From: an uncultured Cohaesibacter sp.
GTDB taxonomy: Bacteria > Pseudomonadota > Alphaproteobacteria > Rhizobiales > Cohaesibacteraceae
Reading direction: 5' to 3'
Assembly (NCBI RefSeq): GCF_963676275.1
Contig: NZ_OY781091.1
Coordinates: 3,574,775-3,638,774 of the forward strand
Length of the DNA stretch: 64,000 nucleotides
The translations under genes were made by a program, and so were the position numbers. The notes beneath the pieces are model-generated. The model saw only the letters and a program-made list of their open reading frames with translations, had not been told where the DNA came from and did not search any database. Positions 6,073 through 15,288 of the stretch are shown here, one piece after another. Numbering within the stretch: the stretch's first letter is position 1; every line of letters begins with the position of its first letter.

Positions 6073-7089
6073 TTAGAGTTCGACCACCAGCTTGAGAACA
6101 TCATTCTTGTTGGCTTCCCAATATGGCAGGGCATCAGCGGCCTGATCCATCGGGAAGGTTTTGGTGATCAGGCTGTCCATCTTGTCGCCGATCTTGAGCA
6201 GAGCCTCGATCACCGCATCAAAGTCCGGACGCATTGCGTTGCGAGAGCCCATGATATCCAGTTCCTTGAGGTTGAAGAATTTTGTCTCATAGGTAACCGG
6301 AGCCTTGGAATAGCCGACATAGACAACGCGACCACAGAAGCAGGCAACATCGATTGCAGTGGTGAAGGTGATGGGCAGGCCAACGGCTTCGATAACGACA
6401 TTGGCACCGTGATTGTCGGTCAGTTCATTGACCTTCGCAACCAGCGCTTCACCACTCAGGGTGAGGAACTCACTGGCGCCAACGAGCTTGGCGATCTCTT
6501 CCTTTTCCGGGCTGACATCAACGGCAATGACGCGCGCACCACGCGCAGCAGCGCCCATGATGGCGCCCACACCGATCATGCCGCAGCCCATCACGACAAC
6601 GGTGTCGCTGGCTTCAACCCGACCGCGGGATACCGCATGAAAACCGACAGATAGCGGCTCGACCAGAACCTGCCGTTTCGGCGTCAGGCTTTCATTCGGC
6701 ACGACACAGTCGGCACGAATGACCATCTTCTCGCGCAGGGCACCATCGCGCTGAACACCGAGCGTTTCATTATAGCGGCAGGCATTCGGGCGACCGGCGC
6801 GACAGCTGCTGCAATGGCCACAAGCGGAATAGGGCCAGAGAATGACCGACTGGCCAATCTTGATCTCATCACCGACATTCGCACCCTTTTCAACGACAAA
6901 ACCGGACGCTTCATGCCCGGGAATACGAGGCAGCTGAACCAGAGGATTCTTGCCCATATATGTGTTGAGGTCACTGCCGCAGAAACCCACATAGGCAATG
7001 TCAACCAGAACATCATCCGGTCCCATGGTCATCGGCTCGACGTCGCGAAGCTCGTTCTTTTCCGCGTCAACAATGCAAAGTGCTTTCAT
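6073..7089 (-). CDS. Zinc-dependent medium-chain alcohol dehydrogenase
   Basis: A 338-residue cytoplasmic NAD(P)-dependent dehydrogenase resembling L-galactonate/L-idonate/sorbitol dehydrogenases. Catalytic zinc ligands are Cys37 (in CGSD), His59-Glu60 (PGHE) and probably Glu144 (VEPLS). Structural zinc ligands are Cys90, Cys93, Cys96 and Cys104. The Rossmann glycine motif GCGMIGVGA starts near residue 168. SRNAMRPDF near the C-terminus is shared with L-galactonate-type dehydrogenases. The frame is open to 7293, but the ATG at 7089 has AAGGAG seven bases upstream. Divergence from the GntR gene across a multi-site operator suggests a role in hexuronate or hexonate oxidation. The exact substrate is inference. 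Confidence 0.85.
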   Translation of the reverse strand: MKALCIVDAEKNELRDVEPMTMGPDDVLVDIAYVGFCGSDLNTYMGKNPLVQLPRIPGHEASGFVVEKGANVGDEIKIGQSVILWPYSACGHCSSCRAGRPNACRYNETLGVQRDGALREKMVIRADCVVPNESLTPKRQVLVEPLSVGFHAVSRGRVEASDTVVVMGCGMIGVGAIMGAAARGARVIAVDVSPEKEEIAKLVGASEFLTLSGEALVAKVNELTDNHGANVVIEAVGLPITFTTAIDVACFCGRVVYVGYSKAPVTYETKFFNLKELDIMGSRNAMRPDFDAVIEALLKIGDKMDSLITKTFPMDQAADALPYWEANKNDVLKLVVEL

Positions 7090-7400
7090 CACTTTTCTCC
7101 TTTGCGATTTATTCTTCCAGAGCAGAAATCCGCTCTTTTGTTCTGGTCCTGATTTTTCATGCCTGAGCGGGAAGCCGGACAGCTTCGCCACATCCGGAGG
7201 GCAGTGACGAAAGCCGTCGCTCGGGAGGAAACTGCGGCCCCATACGCGCATCACAGCGCTCATAAAGGAGCCGGGCCTCAACCGCTCAGGCATGTCTGAT
7301 AGGTCGAACTGCTTATTTTCCGACCAATTCCCAAATAGCTCCCATGTTTCCGTGCAAAACTAGTGAATTTCGCGTCAAAAATGTAAAATTACATTCGATT

Positions 7401-7439
7401 GATGGGATGTTTATCCCATAAACATGGGATGAATGTCAA
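7401..7439. promoter_or_regulatory. Three-site operator cluster between dehydrogenase and gntR
   Basis: Three copies of a 7-bp core, ATGGGAT (7402-7408), ATCCCAT (7413-7419) and ATGGGAT (7424-7430), are spaced exactly 11 bp apart and alternate in orientation, so neighbouring copies form inverted repeats. The third copy sits in CATGGGATG, the reverse complement of the CATCCCATG found upstream of dctP and uxaA. A TTGACA on the minus strand (7439-7434) could be the -35 box of the dehydrogenase. This is probably the main autoregulatory site of the GntR protein. Confidence 0.65.
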
Positions 7440-7484
7440 TATAAAGACGAAAGCAATGCAAAAAATCTGGTAGAATTTACCAAT

Positions 7485-7495
7485 TGATGGGATCA
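7485..7495. promoter_or_regulatory. Additional hexuronate operator TGATGGGATCA
   Basis: A perfect TGAT-GGG-ATCA palindrome containing the same ATGGGAT core. Its centre (7490) is 74 bp from the middle site of the upstream cluster (7416), the same spacing seen for the operator pairs of dctP and uxaA. It overlaps the furthest-upstream possible gntR start, which supports a downstream start at 7559. Confidence 0.5.
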
Positions 7496-7558
7496 TTGAC
7501 TTATAACCGCAAATTGGTAATGTTGATCGAGCGAAATCGGAATGAGGTACCCACGCAC

Positions 7559-8281
7559 ATGAGCAGCCCAAAGGTAGATCTGGCTATTTCACTGGTTCAG
7601 GATTTGATTCGATCTGGCAAAATCAAACCCGGAGATCGCCTGCCGAATGAGGCTGAGTTTTCCACTCAACTCGGTGTGTCGCGCAACTCTCTGCGCGAAG
7701 CGGTTCGTGCCATGAGCGCCATGAAAATTCTTGAAGCCAGACAAGGAGATGGCACCTATGTCTCCGGTCTGGATCCGGCCCAGATGATCGAAACCCTGCG
7801 TTTCGCTGTCGATGTCTCAGGCCCCGAAGCGGTTCTGTGGTTCCTCGAAATCCGCGTCCTGATGGAGCTGCACACAACAGCCATAGCCGCAGCCCGACGC
7901 ACAAAATCCGATCTGGACCGCCTCAAGCAATGCCATCAGGCCATGCTCAAGGCCGAAGATACCGACACGCTGCTCAAGAAGGATTCCGAGTTCCATCACA
8001 TCATCGCCGAGACAACCAAGAATCCGATCATGATTTCCCTGCTCAATGTGGTTTCCGCGCCGGGCCTGAGGGCACGCATCTGGCGCAACCGCATGACCGA
8101 CAGCGCAACCAACAATCTGCGCATCGAGCATGAAGAGGTGCTCAACCGCATCGAAGCGCAGGACGTCGAAGGCGCCAAATATGCCATGTATGCCCATGTC
8201 AGCGGCGTTCAGAGCTGGGTTAGAAACAATCCCGATTTCTTTTCCGCTTCCGAAGAGCCCCAAAGCTCGACCAAAAAGTAA
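7559..8281 (+). CDS. GntR/FadR-family regulator, probable hexuronate repressor
   Basis: A 240-residue transcription factor. The N-terminal winged helix-turn-helix spans about residues 5-72, with PGDRLPNEAEFSTQLGVSRNSLREAVRAM and the wing ARQGDGTYV. The C-terminal part is an all-helical FCD ligand domain with the likely metal-binding pattern D..FH..I (DSEFHHIIAE) and later histidines. Its position between hexuronate genes, with four operator-like palindromes in its own upstream region and the same palindrome before dctP and uxaA, points to a UxuR/ExuR-like repressor. The frame is open from 7484 (TTG) and 7487 (ATG), but those starts lie on an operator. The ATG at 7559 has GAGG eleven bases upstream and fits the domain boundary. 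Confidence 0.85.
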   Translation: MSSPKVDLAISLVQDLIRSGKIKPGDRLPNEAEFSTQLGVSRNSLREAVRAMSAMKILEARQGDGTYVSGLDPAQMIETLRFAVDVSGPEAVLWFLEIRVLMELHTTAIAAARRTKSDLDRLKQCHQAMLKAEDTDTLLKKDSEFHHIIAETTKNPIMISLLNVVSAPGLRARIWRNRMTDSATNNLRIEHEEVLNRIEAQDVEGAKYAMYAHVSGVQSWVRNNPDFFSASEEPQSSTKK

Positions 8282-8329
8282 TTCGGCAAGCATCAGACTG
8301 GCCCAAGGCCGCAGCCAGCAAGGCTGACA

Positions 8330-8363
8330 AAAAAGCCCCGCAGAACGATCTGCGGGGCTTTTT
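8330..8363. terminator. Bidirectional terminator between gntR and the TRAP operon
   Basis: A 14-bp perfect stem, AAAAAGCCCCGCAG and CTGCGGGGCTTTTT, surrounds a six-base loop. A-run and T-run on the two sides let it work in both directions. It lies between the convergent gntR (plus) and TRAP large permease (minus) genes. Confidence 0.9.
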
Positions 8364-8381
8364 GTTTGATGCCATATCTCG

Positions 8382-9661
<1,280 letters not shown>

Positions 9662-9665
<4 letters not shown>

Positions 9666-10159
9666 GCTGCTTCTCCTTCCTTATTATGGTCTTGGTGCTC
9701 GGGATGATCCAGACCGCGAATTTTCTTCACCATGTTGATGGCAACAAAGATGGCAGATCCGATCATGCCGACAGGCACGGCGATATCGATCCAGTACCAG
9801 GAGATTTTCAACACGCCCGTCAGTTTGAAGGCCACGCGTTCGGCCAGGCTATGCCCCAGATAGGCAATATAGAGCAGCAGCCCGATAGAGATCAGGGAAA
9901 CGAAGATCGAGCAGATCATGCGGGTCTTCTCGCCCATCAGGTCGGTCAGGAATGCGATCGAGAGATTCTCACGGTCTCTTTCCGCACACATGGCGCCAAC
10001 CATGACCACCCAGATCATGGCAAGGCCGGATGTTTCTTCCATCCACAAAATGGGGCTTTCCATCCAGTAACGCATGAAAACTGAATAGGAGGTTGCCAGG
10101 ACCAGATAGGCAAGTGGCAGGCCCAGCAGAATCGTAAAGATTCGACGCGTTATAGACAT
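9662..10159 (-). CDS. TRAP transporter small permease (DctQ family)
   Basis: A 165-residue membrane protein with four predicted helices, standard for the DctQ subunit, which pairs with the large permease. The typical WMEETSGLAMIWVVMVGAM stretch lies at about residues 39-57, where the family has a conserved W.EE motif. It sits between the binding protein (77 bases upstream) and the large permease (4-base overlap). The C-terminal tail is charged and cytoplasmic. Confidence 0.9.
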
Positions 10160-10236
10160 TGGAATTCCGTTTCAAGTCAAGGCGTTGAAGATGCCTGCCG
10201 CATGGTCTGCGACAGGCAGCGGCATAATGCCGGGAA

Positions 10237-11211
10237 TTATTTCAGCTGTTCCTGAATTTTGTCAAAGAGACCTTCGCTCCATTCAGGGAACTGACCGTAG
10301 ACAGTCATGGCCTTTTCACGGAAAGGAGCGGTATCAGGATAGATGACCTCTACACCGGCTTCCTTGAATTTCGCAATGAAGTCAGCTTCGCTTTCCTTGG
10401 CAAGCTGCTGGCTATAGACACCGGCCTCATACGCAGTTTCGTGAATGAGATCCAGATCTTTCTGGTCCAGGGTCTGGAAGAAAGCTTCACCACCAATGAA
10501 CACGGAAGTGTTCGTCAGATAGTTGATCATGGAAAGATATTTGGCTTCTTCCTGGAACTTGGCGCCATAGATCACGGCGAGCGGGTTTTCAACGCCATCG
10601 ATGATACCCTGAGACAGAGCGGTATAGGCTTCACCCAGAGGCATCGGGGTAGGCGTACCACCCATAGCTTTGATCGCCTTGATCTGCATGACGTTGTTTG
10701 GCGTGCGGATCTTCAGGCCCTTGAGATCGTCAGGGGTACGAACCGGCTTGTTGGCGATCAGCTGACGAACACCATAAAGGTAGTTTGTCATGACCAGATG
10801 AACGCCCTTTTCATTCAGCTCTTTTTCTTTTTCCTTGAACCAGTCGCTTTCATAGATAGCGAAGAGTTTGGCAGGATCCTCAGTCAGATACGGGCCAAAC
10901 AGAATACCAAGGTCAGGAACAAAGTCGGACAGGAAGCCGACGTCACTGATGGTAATGACGTTGGAGCCAAACATGGCCTGCTCGGTAACGTCCTGCTTAG
11001 AACCCAGCTGAGAGCTTGGATACAGTTCCAGTTTGATGGTGCCGTTGCTCTTTGCTTCAAGATCCTTGGCCCATTTGTTGACAACGATGTCAAGAGGCTC
11101 GCCTGGGTTGTTTTCGTAAGCAACCTTGATGGTTACGTCAGCCATGGCAGCGCCAACCATGGTGGTCATTGCAACTGCGGCAGCTACAGTATATTTGAGC
11201 AGATTTTTCAT
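10237..11211 (-). CDS. TRAP transporter substrate-binding protein (DctP family)
   Basis: A 324-residue periplasmic binding protein with a signal peptide (MKNLLKYTVAAAVAMTTMVG, then AAMADVTIK). The DctP pattern is clear: PGEPLDIVVNKWAKDLEAKSNG, YPSSQLGSKQDVTEQAMFG near residue 70, and the conserved PDDLKGLKIRTPNNVMQIKAIKAMGGTPTPM region around 150, whose Arg normally clamps a ligand carboxylate. The frame is open to 11310, but the ATG at 11211 has GGGAGGG just upstream and precedes the signal peptide. Its promoter region carries two operator palindromes 74 bp apart. Galacturonate or a related acid sugar is the likely ligand by context. Confidence 0.93.
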   Translation of the reverse strand: MKNLLKYTVAAAVAMTTMVGAAMADVTIKVAYENNPGEPLDIVVNKWAKDLEAKSNGTIKLELYPSSQLGSKQDVTEQAMFGSNVITISDVGFLSDFVPDLGILFGPYLTEDPAKLFAIYESDWFKEKEKELNEKGVHLVMTNYLYGVRQLIANKPVRTPDDLKGLKIRTPNNVMQIKAIKAMGGTPTPMPLGEAYTALSQGIIDGVENPLAVIYGAKFQEEAKYLSMINYLTNTSVFIGGEAFFQTLDQKDLDLIHETAYEAGVYSQQLAKESEADFIAKFKEAGVEVIYPDTAPFREKAMTVYGQFPEWSEGLFDKIQEQLK

Positions 11212-11306
11212 AATCCCTCCCATATATGGGTCCTGAGTTTGGCAAGATCCATCTGTTGTGGATGCTTGCAAGCCGAGATGTGGGTAGAACCTCCCTACCC
11301 TCCATT

Positions 11307-11317
11307 TCATCCCATGA
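11307..11317. promoter_or_regulatory. Proximal operator of the TRAP operon
   Basis: TCATCCCATGA, a palindrome apart from its central C. Its centre (11312) is 27 bp downstream of a TTGACA box (11344-11339, minus strand), so it should cover the start of transcription. The uxaA promoter has the same element at the same distance. Confidence 0.6.
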
Positions 11318-11338
11318 TTGGCACAAATTACAGCAATA

Positions 11339-11344
11339 TGTCAA
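11339..11344 (-). promoter_or_regulatory. -35 box of the TRAP operon promoter
   Basis: A perfect TTGACA on the minus strand, about 130 bases upstream of the dctP start codon, between two operator palindromes. The matching -10 is poor by eye, so the start point is not fixed. Confidence 0.5.
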
Positions 11345-11381
11345 TATTTATTCGGTGTTTTCCTGTATTCTCCTCAATATA

Positions 11382-11390
11382 CATCCTATG
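11382..11390. promoter_or_regulatory. Distal operator of the TRAP operon
   Basis: CATCCTATG within ATACATCCTATGTTTT, centred 74 bp upstream of the proximal operator. ACAT and ATGT form the inverted arms. Confidence 0.55.
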
Positions 11391-11514
11391 TTTTCAATCA
11401 TTGAGGTAAATATCGAATAACCTGAAAGCGGTATGGAATTGCCACACAATCGCAGGTCCATACCCGCCTTGCCGAGTGATCCGATAATCGATCAAAAATA
11501 TCGACAAGCACTTC

Positions 11515-11548
11515 AAAAAAAGCCCGACAGTCGCATGACTGCCGGACT
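11515..11548 (-). terminator. Terminator after uxaB
   Basis: Read on the minus strand, AGTCCGGCAGTC and GACTGTCGGGCT form a 12-bp stem with two wobble pairs and an ATGC loop, followed by a run of seven T. It closes the uxaA-uxaB transcript about 60 bases after the uxaB stop. Confidence 0.85.
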
Positions 11549-11609
11549 CTCAAAAGTTGAAACCCGTTATTTCAAACAGCGCCCTTCATGCAAAGGGCAA
11601 CTGCCTGTT

Positions 11610-13070
11610 TCAGGCCTTGATCCAGTCATTCAGGTCTTCAAGCTTGAAATCCGAACCGGTCAGGAATTCATAAGCTTGAGAGACGGCAGCGACGAGGGCA
11701 TCGCTTGCCAGATTTTTGCCCCAGATGCTTTCTTCGGCCAGATAGACCTTGACCATCGCGGCAACACCCTCGGCATCCTTCAGAGCACCGATGGCAGCCA
11801 TCTTGGCAATGACATCCTCGGCATCGCGCGGTGGCAATTCAGCGCTGCCCGCAAAAGCGCCGGTATAGAAAGCAAGCCATGCGGCCAGCGACAGGCTCAT
11901 GCAGCGCGGCGGCGTGCCGGTGGCTGCCATGGCGCTTTCGAAGCGCGGCAGGTTGCGGGTGTGGAACTTGGCCAGACCATTAAGCGAGATGTCATACCAG
12001 CGATGGACGATGAACGGGTTGGCAAAGCGGCGCAGAACCTCGGCGGAAAATTCATTCAGCTCTTCGCGTGGCAGCGACAGATATGGAATGATTTCCGTTT
12101 CCAGCATCTTGTTAAGGAAGGCACGGGCCGCCTCGTTGTCCATGGCCTCTTTCACCGAATTGGTGCCGGAAAGCAGCGCCAGCGGGCACAGTCCGGTATG
12201 GGCGCCGTTGAGGATCGCCACCTTGCGTTCCTTGTAACCATCAGCATTGGGCACGATCACCGTACCGGCATCCTTTTCTGCCATCGGCAGGCAGAGATCT
12301 GGCTTGCCCGCCCGCTGTTCGATGACGAGGAAGTGGAACAGCTCGCCGGTGACCATCAGCGGATCAAGATAGCCCAGTTCCTTCTCGATGGCGGCAGCCT
12401 CGTCACGCGGATAGCCCGGAACGATGCGGTCGACGAGGGTGTTGTAGAAGGCGTTCTTCGTCTCGAGCCAGGTGATGAACTCGGCGCCGAGATCCCAGTC
12501 CTTGGCATGCTTGTGAACGGTCTCTTCGAGCGTGTCGGCATTGTGGTCGATCAGCTCGCAGGGCAGGAAATGGAAGCCGGGCGCATCCACACCGCCACAG
12601 GTATTGAAGCGTTCGAGCAGCAGCCGGGTCACCTTGGCCGGATAGGAAGCCGGTGGGGTGTCGGTTGCCTTGCACTCGCCATTATAGACGATACCAGCCT
12701 CGGTGGTGTTGGAAATGACGGCAACAAAGTCGGTATTGCGGGCCAGCGAAAGCACCTCGTCCCACTGCTTGACCGCATTGAGCTCACGGCGCACCGCCGA
12801 GATCAGACGGGCATCAGACACCGCCTCGCCATCCGGGCCAACCCCGCGCGAGAGAACCGTATAGACACCATCGCTGTCATTGAGCGAAATCGGCACGCCA
12901 CCATCGATGGGGCGGACGATGACGATGCCATAATCGGCCCCGCAATCCTCATTCATGCGATCAATCTTCCAGTCCATGAAGGCGCGCAGGAAGTTGCCCT
13001 CACCAAACTGGATGATCCGTTCGGTCGGACGCGCCCGACCGCCTAGATTGCTCTCATTAACGCGTTGCAT
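11610..13070 (-). CDS. uxaB: Tagaturonate reductase (altronate oxidoreductase)
   Basis: Predicted to interconvert D-tagaturonate and D-altronate with NAD(H) in the galacturonate pathway. The 486-residue protein belongs to the polyol/mannitol dehydrogenase family. It opens with the UxaB-type IIQFGEGNFLRAFMDW (residues about 19-34) and VVRPIDGG. Later it has the family catalytic region with a Lys in KTE-type order (LKNAFYNTLVDRIVPGYPR near residue 205) and NGAHTGLCPLALLSG near 300. The length matches E. coli UxaB (483 aa). A ribosome site AAGGAAA precedes the ATG. It lies downstream of uxaA, separated by a 57-bp tandem repeat array, and a terminator follows. Confidence 0.93.
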   Translation of the reverse strand: MQRVNESNLGGRARPTERIIQFGEGNFLRAFMDWKIDRMNEDCGADYGIVIVRPIDGGVPISLNDSDGVYTVLSRGVGPDGEAVSDARLISAVRRELNAVKQWDEVLSLARNTDFVAVISNTTEAGIVYNGECKATDTPPASYPAKVTRLLLERFNTCGGVDAPGFHFLPCELIDHNADTLEETVHKHAKDWDLGAEFITWLETKNAFYNTLVDRIVPGYPRDEAAAIEKELGYLDPLMVTGELFHFLVIEQRAGKPDLCLPMAEKDAGTVIVPNADGYKERKVAILNGAHTGLCPLALLSGTNSVKEAMDNEAARAFLNKMLETEIIPYLSLPREELNEFSAEVLRRFANPFIVHRWYDISLNGLAKFHTRNLPRFESAMAATGTPPRCMSLSLAAWLAFYTGAFAGSAELPPRDAEDVIAKMAAIGALKDAEGVAAMVKVYLAEESIWGKNLASDALVAAVSQAYEFLTGSDFKLEDLNDWIKA

Positions 13071-13166
13071 AATCGGTTTCCTTTTGAAGTCTTGTTCTTG
13101 AATTCACGATATGTGGCCCGACCGGGCGGAGAAAACATGCCCCCGCCGCCGGGCGAAGCCTGCTAT

Positions 13167-13424
13167 GCGGCGATCACATCACCGCACCGATGTGCCCAAA
13201 GCCCTAGAACATGGCCCGAAGGTGCGGGGATTACATCACCGCGCCAATGTGCCCAAAGCCCTTGAACATGGCCCGAAGGTGCGGCGATCACATCACCGCG
13301 CCGATGTGCCCAAAGCCCTAGAACATGGCCCGAAGGCGCGGGGATTACATCACCGCGCCGATGTGCCCAAAGCCCTAAAACATGGCCCGAAGGCGCGGCG
13401 ATCACATCACCGCGCCGATGTGCC
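13167..13424. repeat. 57-bp tandem repeat array at the 3' end of uxaA
   Basis: About 4.5 copies of a 57-bp unit; the anchor ACATCACC recurs at 13176, 13233, 13290, 13347 and 13404. Units 1, 3 and 5 read CGATCACATC and units 2 and 4 read GGATTACATC, so the array alternates like a 114-bp higher-order repeat. The last copy is the final seven codons and stop of uxaA. Each odd unit can fold as GGCGCGGCGAT-CAC-ATCACCGCGCC (for example 13392-13416). The unit is 19 codons long and has no stop in one minus-strand frame (ATG at 13426, 87 codons). It fills the space between uxaA and uxaB. Confidence 0.93.
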
Positions 13425-14940
13425 ATGGAATGAACTCGTTGTCGCCGAGCCCCAATGCCTCCGACTTGGTCTTCTCACCAGAAGCGACCCGGATGATTGC
13501 CTCCAGAATTTCAGCCCCCTTCTCTTCCAGTGTCACGCCCTTGGAGAGAATGTCGCCGCAATTGATGTCCATATCGTCAGGCATGCTCTCGAACAGATGA
13601 TCGTTCGAAGCCACCTTGATGGTCGGAGCAGGCTTGGAGCCATAGGCAGAGCCGCGACCGGTGGTGAAGATGATCATATGCGCCCCACCGGCAATCTGAC
13701 CGGTACCGCAGACAGGATCATAACCCGGCGTATCCATGAAGACGAAGCCATGATCGGTCACCCGCTCGGCATAATCATAAACGGCAGTGAGCGGAGCCGA
13801 ACCGGACTTGGCGGTCGCACCGAGGGATTTCTCCAGAATGGTGGTCAGGCCACCGGCCTTGTTGCCCGGGCTCGGATTGTTGTCGAGGCTGCCCTTATGC
13901 ATGGCAACATAATCCTCCCACCAGCGGATCTGCGAGATCAGCTTTTCGCCCACTTCCTTGCTGGCCGCGCGGCGCAGCAGCAAGGTTTCGGCACCGTAGA
14001 TCTCGGATGTTTCCGACAGGATGGACGTAGCGCCAAGGCCAACCAGCATGTCTGATGCGACGCCCAGCGCCGGGTTGGCAGTGATACCGGAGAAACCGTC
14101 AGACGCACCGCATTGCAGGGCAATCTTCAGCTCCGAAGCCGGACATGGCTCGCGCTTGATCTTGTTCAGCTCCGGCAGGAGCGCGTGCACCTGAGCCTTG
14201 ATGGCGTCGATGGTCTTGCGGGTGCCGCCGGTTTCCTGAATGGTCATGGAGATGAAGCGATCCATCAGGCTCTGGCCCGGATCATCGAAATTGGACTTCA
14301 TCTGGGCGATCTGCATCACCTCGCAACCAAGCCCGATAAACAGGGCCATGCCGACATTGGGATGAGTTGCATGACCCCAGAGAACCTTGTCGAGAATCTC
14401 GAAACCACGACCCTTGTTATTCATGCCGCAGCCGGATTCATGGGTGAAGATCGCCACACCGTCGACATTGTCGTAAGCGTCAAACGCGCCTTCGATCTCA
14501 AGCTCCTGCGCCGCACGGTGGACCACCGTGGAAGAGCAGTTTACCGTCGAACAGAGCGCGACATAGTTGCGGGTGCCATAGGTGCCATTAGCGCGTTTGT
14601 AGCCCATGAAGGTGCGCGCTTCCAGATGCGGCACAGCGGCCTTTGCCGCTTCCAGATCGCAGCCGATCTGATAATCCTGACCATGGTCGGAGAAAGCGCA
14701 ATTATGCGAATGGACATGCTCGCCAGCGGCAATAGGCTGCGTTGCGCGGCCAATGATCTGACCGAACTTGATGATTGCCTCACCCAGCTCATGCGCCTTG
14801 CGGGCAATCTTGTGTCCCGGCATGATATTGCCTTCCAGCGCGACACCAAGCTCAAGTGGGTCTTCCCCCTTTTTCGCCCCGTCTGGCAAGATTGCAATCG
14901 TATCCGTTGGGTTCAAAACAATCGGTGGTCGTTTGGTCAT
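13402..14940 (-). CDS. uxaA: Altronate dehydratase
   Basis: Predicted to dehydrate D-altronate to 2-keto-3-deoxygluconate, the last hexuronate-specific step of galacturonate breakdown. The 512-residue protein is a full-length UxaA. It has an N-terminal SAF domain with AGEHVHSHNC (about residues 73-82) and a long galactarate/altronate dehydratase domain with GYKRANGTYGTRNYV near 115, SGCGMN near 175 and LKIALQCGASDGFSGITANPALG near 270. The iron/manganese-dependent enzyme acts in the cytoplasm. It is the first gene of a transcript continuing to uxaB, with a two-operator promoter upstream. Its last codons form one copy of the 57-bp repeat. Confidence 0.95.
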   Translation of the reverse strand: MTKRPPIVLNPTDTIAILPDGAKKGEDPLELGVALEGNIMPGHKIARKAHELGEAIIKFGQIIGRATQPIAAGEHVHSHNCAFSDHGQDYQIGCDLEAAKAAVPHLEARTFMGYKRANGTYGTRNYVALCSTVNCSSTVVHRAAQELEIEGAFDAYDNVDGVAIFTHESGCGMNNKGRGFEILDKVLWGHATHPNVGMALFIGLGCEVMQIAQMKSNFDDPGQSLMDRFISMTIQETGGTRKTIDAIKAQVHALLPELNKIKREPCPASELKIALQCGASDGFSGITANPALGVASDMLVGLGATSILSETSEIYGAETLLLRRAASKEVGEKLISQIRWWEDYVAMHKGSLDNNPSPGNKAGGLTTILEKSLGATAKSGSAPLTAVYDYAERVTDHGFVFMDTPGYDPVCGTGQIAGGAHMIIFTTGRGSAYGSKPAPTIKVASNDHLFESMPDDMDINCGDILSKGVTLEEKGAEILEAIIRVASGEKTKSEALGLGDNEFIPWHIGAVM

Positions 14941-15101
14941 TTACCCGCTGCCTTTCTCAAATCCATAGTCTTGCGTTGCCACTTGAAGTCATTTTCAAGC
15001 CATGCTTGACTGGTCCAGCACCGCAATCTGCTTCTGGCTCCGCCATTTTCCATGGGGCAGCAGCCAAATCCTCCGGCACACATGTGGTCAAACGCACCAT
15101 A

Positions 15102-15116
15102 ATTCATCCCATGAAT
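15102..15116. promoter_or_regulatory. Proximal operator of uxaA
   Basis: ATTCATCCCATGAAT, an inverted repeat with 6-bp arms around CCC. Its centre (15109) lies 27 bp downstream of the TTGACA at 15141-15136 on the minus strand, exactly as in the TRAP promoter. Confidence 0.7.
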
Positions 15117-15141
15117 ATCTGAATTTTTCGCGTTTTGTCAA
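15113..15141 (-). promoter_or_regulatory. uxaA promoter
   Basis: TTGACA (15141-15136, minus strand), then a 16-17 base spacer, then a weak AT-rich -10 (GATATT or ATATTC). The proximal operator overlaps the -10 and start region, which fits repression by steric block. Confidence 0.55.
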
Positions 15142-15173
15142 GATTTTTAACAGTCAAACCCCTATAATCAAAG

Positions 15174-15190
15174 AATACATCCAATGTATT
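15174..15190. promoter_or_regulatory. Distal operator of uxaA
   Basis: AATACATCCAATGTATT, a perfect inverted repeat with 7-bp arms around CCA. It is centred 73 bp upstream of the proximal operator, about seven helical turns. Confidence 0.7.
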
Positions 15191-15288
15191 TTCACATAAC
15201 CACATTCACCCTAGCCCAACATGATGTTGTTCTGCCAACCCGAGCTGAACCGCACCAATATCATTGATCTGATTTGAAAGGGACTGAC

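What the first reader, a model, noticed from the sequence alone, without database searches (positions are those of the whole stretch)
7401..15190. Paired CATCCnATG operators 73-74 bp apart in front of hexuronate genes
Seen directly: upstream of dctP, CATCCCATG (centre 11312) and CATCCTATG (centre 11386) are 74 bp apart. Upstream of uxaA, CATCCCATG (15109) and CATCCAATG (15182) are 73 bp apart. In both promoters a TTGACA lies exactly 27 bp from the proximal operator centre. In the gntR-dehydrogenase region three cores are phased at 11 bp, and a fourth lies 74 bp from the middle one. Seven helical turns with operators on both sides of the -35 box suggest repression by DNA looping. FadR-type repressors of hexuronate genes are known (UxuR/ExuR); this geometry is my inference.
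Basis: partly seen in the sequence, partly recalled or inferred. Interest (0 to 1): 0.75.

Follow-up and report, generated by a model that had tools for sequence, protein, structure and literature searches.

The report
Paired repressor sites, fixed helical spacing
In marine Cohaesibacter bacteria, promoters of a sugar-acid pathway carry pairs of binding sites, about seven DNA turns apart, probably read by one GntR-type repressor; the distance barely changes while the DNA between them drifts, so the repressor probably folds the DNA into a small loop to shut the genes.

Summary
The genus is Cohaesibacter. Paired CATnGGATG operators lie 74 bp apart before dctP and 73 bp before uxaA. In 18 genus genomes, exact pairs (60-89 bp allowed) occur 19 times, all at 72-74 bp and only in the 10 genomes with the gntR gene. 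The DNA between is 52-58% identical on average, yet its length varies by at most 1 bp. Tropicimonas, another order, has two such operators 74 bp apart before uxaA. Seven of nine actinobacterial loci with a related regulator hold CATCCnATG cores, mostly palindromic, linking protein and operator.

Corrections: the genes look like an L-galactonate/tagaturonate branch; the uxaC-containing hexuronate clusters lie elsewhere and have no operator pair. The regulator fails the UxuR/ExuR models.

Looping is the best explanation but untested: nothing here shows binding, tetramers or need for phase. Looping by a GntR-family repressor is known (Atu1419). Most species compared are close relatives.

The parts
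7559..8281 (+). gntR: FadR-type (GntR + FCD) regulator, likely reader of the operators
   Evidence: PF00392 and PF07729 above cut-off; model pLDDT 89 with seven C-terminal helices; co-occurs with the pairs in 10 of 10 genomes
6073..7089 (-). zinc-dependent sugar-acid dehydrogenase, LgoD/RspB-like
   Evidence: 31% identical to E. coli LgoD; best PDB sequence match RspB; start by comparison
8382..9665 (-). dctM, TRAP large permease
   Evidence: TIGR00786 above cut-off
9662..10159 (-). dctQ, TRAP small permease
   Evidence: PF04290
10237..11211 (-). dctP, TRAP solute-binding protein
   Evidence: PF03480
11610..13070 (-). uxaB, tagaturonate reductase
   Evidence: NF002969 521.6 bits, cut-off 359
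13402..14940 (-). uxaA, read as altronate dehydratase
   Evidence: PF20629, PF04295; below the galactarate dehydratase cut-off
11305..11319 (.). dctP proximal operator, centre 11312, inferred -10/+1 region
   Evidence: core 11308-11316; 11 of 15 columns invariant in 10 species
11379..11393 (.). dctP distal operator, centre 11386, about -77
   Evidence: core 11382-11390; same distance in 9 of 10 species incl. one degenerate copy, 1 bp less in one
11339..11344 (-). TTGACA, inferred -35 of dctP
   Evidence: invariant, 32 bp from the proximal centre in 10 of 10; the promoter scan found no full sigma-70 match here
15102..15116 (.). uxaA proximal operator, centre 15109
   Evidence: core 15105-15113; 11 of 15 columns invariant in 8 species
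15175..15189 (.). uxaA distal operator, centre 15182
   Evidence: core 15178-15186; 73 bp in 7 of 8 aligned species, 72 in one
15136..15141 (-). TTGACA, inferred -35 of uxaA
   Evidence: 32 bp from the proximal centre in 8 of 8; TTGACA-16-GATATT, 10 of 12
7398..7412 (.). operator A, centre 7405
   Evidence: present in 10 of 10 species
7412..7420 (.). middle core, centre 7416; probably not a conserved operator
   Evidence: ATCCCAT in 3 of 10 species
7420..7434 (.). operator B, centre 7427, just downstream of the inferred dehydrogenase -35
   Evidence: present in 10 of 10, A-B 22-23 bp
7483..7497 (.). operator C, centre 7490, at the inferred gntR -35
   Evidence: present in 10 of 10, B-C 63 bp in 9 and 62 in one
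7434..7439 (-). TTGACA, inferred -35 of the dehydrogenase gene
   Evidence: 7 bp from B in 10 of 10; no full sigma-70 match in the scan
7496..7501 (+). TTGACT, inferred -35 of gntR
   Evidence: 6 bp from C in 10 of 10; no full sigma-70 match in the scan

Best explanation
A FadR-type (GntR/FCD) repressor encoded at 7559-8281 binds, as a dimer, AWWCAT-nGG-ATGWWT operators that come in helically phased sets in its own cluster: before uxaA(-uxaB), before dctPQM, and between gntR and the dehydrogenase gene. At uxaA and dctP one operator lies near the -10/+1 and the other 73-74 bp upstream, with the -35 between. Two bound dimers, or a tetramer, meet and close a loop of about seven turns that excludes RNA polymerase. 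Between gntR and the dehydrogenase the matching distances are about 63 and 85 bp (six and eight turns). A sugar acid of the pathway, probably L-galactonate, L-fuconate or tagaturonate, releases the repressor. Shown by computation: sites, pairing, conserved spacing, association with this regulator. Inferred: binding, repression, effector and loop.
For: 19 exact pairs in 18 genus genomes, all 72-74 bp although 60-89 was allowed, all in the 10 gntR-positive genomes, reversed control 0. Inter-operator length is equal in 36 of 45 (dctP) and 21 of 28 (uxaA) species pairs, against 4 of 45 and 1 of 28 for the leaders; the distal-to--35 segment averages 58% and 52% ungapped identity but keeps its length within 1 bp. 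A-B-C spacing is kept in 10 of 10. Tropicimonas: 74 bp, although TTGACA has moved about 2 bp relative to the operators. CATCCnATG cores lie near related regulators in 7 of 9 actinobacterial loci, 8 of 10 cores with near-palindromic flanks. Precedents: Atu1419, pLS20 repressor.
Against: No binding, oligomer or expression data. Nine of the ten Cohaesibacter regulators are at least 91% identical, so the species are not independent. In G004 (L047) the distal dctP operator is degenerate. Two of nine actinobacterial loci hold no core, and most hold single sites. Loops below about 90 bp are costly unless the DNA is bent (stated in PMC4207663); bending was not tested. The model has seven C-terminal helices, unlike the tetrameric VanR-type Atu1419. 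The scan found no full sigma-70 promoter at dctP or at gntR/dehydrogenase.
Confidence: 0.6

Rival explanations
1. Two operators for the same repressor without a loop: the proximal one blocks polymerase, and the distal one, near -77, hinders upstream contacts of polymerase or only raises local repressor concentration.
For: FadR-subfamily repressors are usually described as dimers (PMC7797058). The distal operator keeps a fixed distance to the -35 within Cohaesibacter. One species has a degenerate distal site.
Against: In Tropicimonas the operator pair keeps 74 bp while both distances to TTGACA change (one case). In the gntR region the sites stand differently to the -35 boxes but still at about 63 and 85 bp.
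Confidence: 0.2
2. The regulator is dual: it represses from the proximal operator and activates, or changes polymerase contacts, from the distal one.
For: A site near -77 is a position from which activators can work, and FadR and LldR have been described as dual regulators (recalled; the title 'Dual role of LldR' was seen in a reference list).
Against: A fixed pair distance is not needed for this, and the dehydrogenase and gntR promoters have a different arrangement.
Confidence: 0.1
3. The distal operators serve a second promoter, either divergent or in tandem.
For: The scan gives a weak plus-strand promoter-like match at 15147-15176 beside the distal uxaA site (9 of 12), and a trmO-like gene starts at 15274 on that strand.
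Against: The gene upstream of uxaA differs among the 8 species examined; trmO lies there only in the window genome. dctP has no divergent gene, since uxaB points the same way. At most 2 of 100 columns upstream of the distal operators are invariant, so no second conserved -35 is seen.
Confidence: 0.05
4. Chance matches in closely related genomes.
For: The bare core is not enriched in the window and most species are close.
Against: Pair statistics, spacers about half diverged with constant length, and recurrence in another order.
Confidence: 0.02

Closest known systems
Atu1419 of Agrobacterium fabrum (GntR, FCD, VanR group; PMC7797058, abstract and passages read)
   Same: FCD-type GntR repressor with two palindromic operators at a promoter; looping seen by electron microscopy
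   Different: Operators 190 bp apart, 10-bp ATGTATACAT, VanR group with six helices; here 73-74 bp, a 15-bp odd-centred operator, seven helices in the model
LldR of E. coli (PMC10272880, passages read)
   Same: Best-scoring NCBIfam model for this regulator; two boxes in every LldR-binding region
   Different: Score 122.5 bits against a cut-off of 311; other operator and other genes; no loop mentioned in the passages I saw
DgoR of E. coli (PMC7674646, passages read)
   Same: FadR-type sensor of a sugar acid (D-galactonate), seven-helix metal-binding FCD, two inverted repeats at its promoter; second-best PDB sequence match (7c7e)
   Different: Repeats overlap the promoter; no distant phased pair described in the passages I saw
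RcoLS20 of plasmid pLS20 (PMC4207663, passages read)
   Same: Short loop between operators about 75 bp apart; 5 bp more destroys regulation
   Different: A conjugation-gene repressor of other sequence type, clusters of CAGTGAAA motifs, statically bent spacer
L-galactonate loci of Halomonas and Chromohalobacter (PMC5507952, passages read)
   Same: lgoD, uxaA, uxaB (or uxaF) and a TRAP transporter together
   Different: No paired operators reported in the passages I saw

Membership tests
GntR superfamily, FadR (FCD) subfamily | GntR winged helix plus FCD domain | tested here: met
   PF00392 57.4 bits (cut-off 27), PF07729 74 bits (cut-off 24.3)
GntR superfamily, FadR (FCD) subfamily | Seven-helix C-terminal domain (FadR group) rather than six (VanR group) | tested here: met
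   Predicted model, pLDDT 89: helices 73-87, 89-113, 116-131, 135-151, 156-179, 181-199, 203-223; prediction only
GntR superfamily, FadR (FCD) subfamily | Operator with TKGT/ACMA boxes and usually a 3-nt centre | tested here: not met
   Three-base centre kept, but the boxes read CAT/ATG; exceptions such as NanR and BioR are known
UxuR / ExuR hexuronate repressors | Equivalog model cut-offs | tested here: not met
   62.5 vs 442 and 57.4 vs 396 bits
LldR | Equivalog model cut-off | tested here: not met
   122.5 vs 311 bits
DNA-looping repressors | Two operators in phase with conserved spacing around the promoter | tested here: met
DNA-looping repressors | Tetramer or dimer-dimer contact; loss of repression on half-turn insertion; need for the distal operator | not testable with these tools
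   needs protein and reporter experiments
L-galactonate utilisation locus | lgoD + uxaA + uxaB + TRAP transporter, no uxaC | tested here: inconclusive
   uxaB, a uxaA-family gene and TRAP present; dehydrogenase 31% to LgoD but also close to RspB; uxaC elsewhere; substrate untested

The most novel reading that the evidence does not exclude
The repressor is a fixed-length DNA ruler: one protein closes six-, seven- and eight-turn loops at three promoters, and the preferred length is set by the protein and co-evolves with it. In C. celericrescens (regulator 69-70% identical) the uxaA, dctP and B-C distances (72, 73, 62) are each exactly 1 bp shorter than in the other species measured. It would be a seven-helix FadR-group repressor that works by a tight obligatory loop, with a natural series of spacings for measuring helical repeat and loop energetics in vivo.
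Probability: 0.25. Interest if true: 0.65.

Novelty: new variant of a known kind. Interest (0 to 1): 0.48.

Why it matters
GntR repressors are mostly treated as single-dimer blockers; the paper on Atu1419 calls it the first tetrameric member. Here promoters of one cluster keep 62-86 bp operator distances to within 1-2 bp in ten species, and the seven-turn pair recurs in another order. That gives a compact test of whether FadR-type repressors loop DNA below 90 bp. The locus also suggests an operator (CATnGGATG) for a branch of regulators with members in Alphaproteobacteria and Actinomycetota, useful for regulon prediction and sugar-acid biosensors.

Tried and rejected
Single-core enrichment: rejected as evidence, 5 seen and 4.76 expected. 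A genome-wide regulon: AWNCATCCNATGNWT has 7 exact hits, 4 of them here; of the other 3, two lie inside long open frames and one overlaps the likely start codon of a gene I read as fucU, so I treat the regulon as local. Operators at the genome's other uronate clusters: the uxaC locus at 355 kb (4.4 kb) has no core; the one at 3.93 Mb (4.3 kb) has one bare core, about 440 bp upstream of uxaC, without the A/T flanks; the wider stretches of 19-20 kb hold one bare core each, the one in L218 being that same core. In four gntR-negative genomes the uxaA-uxaB stretches hold 0, 0, 1 and 1 bare cores; the one in L222 is about 420 bp upstream of uxaA. The DctP model failed (pLDDT 35), so no structure search was made with it; that 4ovt and 4o8m bind L-fuconate and L-galactonate is recalled, and one search found no paper with these codes. 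Wider homolog searches: 1 of 385 class genomes (the own one) and 1 of 394 genomes of the Tropicimonas family (itself); few candidates per genome are scored, so misses are possible. A recognition-helix argument (Ala or Thr at position 32) was too indirect. Second sites near actinobacterial cores (L186, 116 bp, exact; L188, 75 bp and L187, 41 bp, one mismatch each) may be chance. DNA curvature was not computed. Papers on the operator sequence: searches listed 15 of 18 and 25 of 72 papers; I opened none for this purpose; among those listed none is by title about a GntR operator, and one Lactococcus paper (PMC4286628) holding CATCCCATG and GntR was not opened.
Full report
WHAT IS THERE. The window lies in a 5.03-Mb chromosome. 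On the minus strand stand uxaA, uxaB, then dctP-dctQ-dctM; gntR (plus) and a zinc dehydrogenase (minus) diverge at 7090-7558.

IS IT MORE THAN CHANCE. The bare 9-mer is not enriched (5 seen, 4.76 expected). The pair is: in the whole genome two same-strand exact pairs have centres 71-77 bp apart, both here, with 0.019 expected from 92 and 74 single cores. In 18 genus genomes, exact pairs with 60-89 bp spacing occur 19 times; spans give 72, 73 or 74 bp in every case; all lie in the 10 genomes with gntR and none in the other 8; the reversed control gives 0. By promoter: uxaA 73 bp in 9 and 72 in 1; dctP 74 in 8 and 73 in 1. The pairs of G007 and G010 on separate contigs I assigned to uxaA by similarity, not by alignment. 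The tenth dctP promoter (G004, L047) has a degenerate distal half-site at the same 74 bp.

LENGTH IS KEPT, SEQUENCE IS NOT. Between distal operator and -35 the mean ungapped identity (equal-length pairs) is 58% (dctP) and 52% (uxaA), down to 38% and 33%. The lengths are 34 bp in 9 and 33 in 1 of 10 dctP promoters, 33 bp in 7 and 32 in 1 of 8 uxaA promoters. Two of 34 and 2 of 33 columns are invariant there, against 11-12 of 15 in each operator and 6 of 6 in TTGACA. Inter-operator length differs in 9 of 45 and 7 of 28 species pairs; the leaders downstream, of similar identity, differ in 41 of 45 and 27 of 28. Nine of the ten regulators are at least 91% identical, so these pairs are not independent.

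THE DIVERGENT REGION. A (7405), B (7427) and C (7490) are present in all 10 species: A-B 22-23, B-C 63 (62 in one), A-C 85-86 (84 in one). The middle core reads ATCCCAT in 3 of 10, so '74 bp from the middle core' is a feature of this genome rather than of the system. TGTCAA is 7 bp from B and TTGAC 6 bp from C in 10 of 10; I read these as the -35 boxes of the dehydrogenase gene and of gntR. The promoter scan found no full sigma-70 match at dctP or in this region, and at uxaA one match on each strand.

A SECOND ORDER. Tropicimonas sediminicola (Rhodobacterales) has a 57-60% identical regulator beside uxaA. Two operators lie 74 bp apart upstream of uxaA. TTGACA lies between them, 34 bp from the proximal centre (32 in Cohaesibacter) and 40 bp from the distal one (41-42; 40 in one uxaA): the pair distance is held although the -35 has moved. 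No operator was found just upstream of its gntR.

WHO READS THE OPERATORS. (a) Pairs and gntR co-occur: 10 of 10 with, 0 of 8 without. Four of those eight have uxaA-uxaB copies without pairs, but these are copies of another cluster, so the test is weak. (b) Nine actinobacterial loci with 35-41% identical homologs (L058, eight plasmid hits) were scanned over about 12.6 kb each. Seven hold 10 exact CATCCnATG cores; 8 of the 10 match a palindrome at 10 or more of 12 positions (six match by construction), three perfectly, such as AGACATCCGATGTCT. In L058, L189 and L192 a site lies within about 150 bp upstream of gntR. L191 and L193 have none. The consensus of 66 Cohaesibacter sites is AWWCATnGGATGWWT: the three-base centre of FadR-subfamily sites without their TKGT/ACMA boxes. 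The asymmetric centre is flipped at the proximal site of Tropicimonas and at B of L048, so the symmetric arms probably matter.

WHAT THE GENES DO. uxaB passes the tagaturonate reductase model; uxaA is below the galactarate dehydratase cut-off and I read it as altronate dehydratase. No uxaC is in the cluster. The genome's two uxaC genes are at 355 kb and 3.93 Mb, the latter near its own uxaA (72%), a 96% identical uxaB and another TRAP transporter; no operator pair is seen there, only a bare core about 440 bp upstream of that uxaC. The dehydrogenase is 31% identical to E. coli LgoD, with RspB as best PDB match. The set lgoD + uxaA + uxaB + TRAP is what PMC5507952 (passages) describes as L-galactonate loci. 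The Tsukamurella relative stands beside an alpha-L-fucosidase and, like the Curtobacterium one, beside fumarylacetoacetate hydrolase and SDR genes, which I read as L-fucose-type acid pathways. I therefore prefer L-galactonate, L-fuconate or tagaturonate as substrate and inducer; this is inference.

MECHANISM. Relative to the inferred -35 the proximal operator covers the -10/+1 region and the distal one is centred near -77. Distances of 63, 73-74 and 85 bp put the sites on nearly one DNA face. The best explanation is repression through a small loop held by two repressor dimers. Precedents: Atu1419, an FCD-type GntR tetramer seen looping 190 bp (PMC7797058, passages); RcoLS20, operators 75 bp apart and regulation destroyed by 5 bp more (PMC4207663, passages); LldR, two boxes in every target region (PMC10272880, passages). 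The regulator model has seven C-terminal helices, as reported for FadR and DgoR rather than for Atu1419. H146 and H191 are invariant in 41 homologs, H213 is kept in 36 and D142 in 26, which fits a metal-dependent sugar-acid sensor such as DgoR (PMC7674646, passages). Foldseek gives FCD-type GntR proteins in general, NanR first. Missing: any evidence on binding, oligomer state, DNA bending or need for phase.

A DETAIL WORTH TESTING. In C. celericrescens (L048, G015; regulator 69-70% identical) the uxaA, dctP and B-C distances are each exactly 1 bp shorter than in the other species (72, 73, 62). With three loci this may be coincidence; if not, loop length is set by the protein.

VERDICT. A real, conserved paired-operator architecture, very probably read by the adjacent FadR-type regulator; looping likely but unproven; gene label corrected; a new variant of a known kind. 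Searches listed no paper that I could see to describe this operator or such pairs; the library lacks most subscription journals, and most listed papers were not opened.

Noticed in passing
window 11610-13070 and G000:C1:3924738-3926195 (L208, L218): A second uxaB copy is 96% identical in protein and about 95% in DNA, while the neighbouring uxaA copies are 72% identical in protein. In five other species the within-genome copies are 90-100% identical over 1.4-2.9 kb, which looks like gene conversion between the two clusters.
   Followed up: partly
window 13111-13400: The gap between uxaB and uxaA holds a short tandem-repeat stretch; the mechanical plus-strand open frame 13111-14055 reads repeated KALEHGPK-HHRADVP units.
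   Followed up: no
L051, position 1066 (G000 about 4756665): An exact extended operator match overlaps the likely start codon of a gene I read as fucU (L-fucose mutarotase, recalled from its sequence).
   Followed up: no
L186, 7743 and 7859: An Embleya plasmid relative has two exact cores 116 bp apart (about 11 turns) downstream of its gntR.
   Followed up: no
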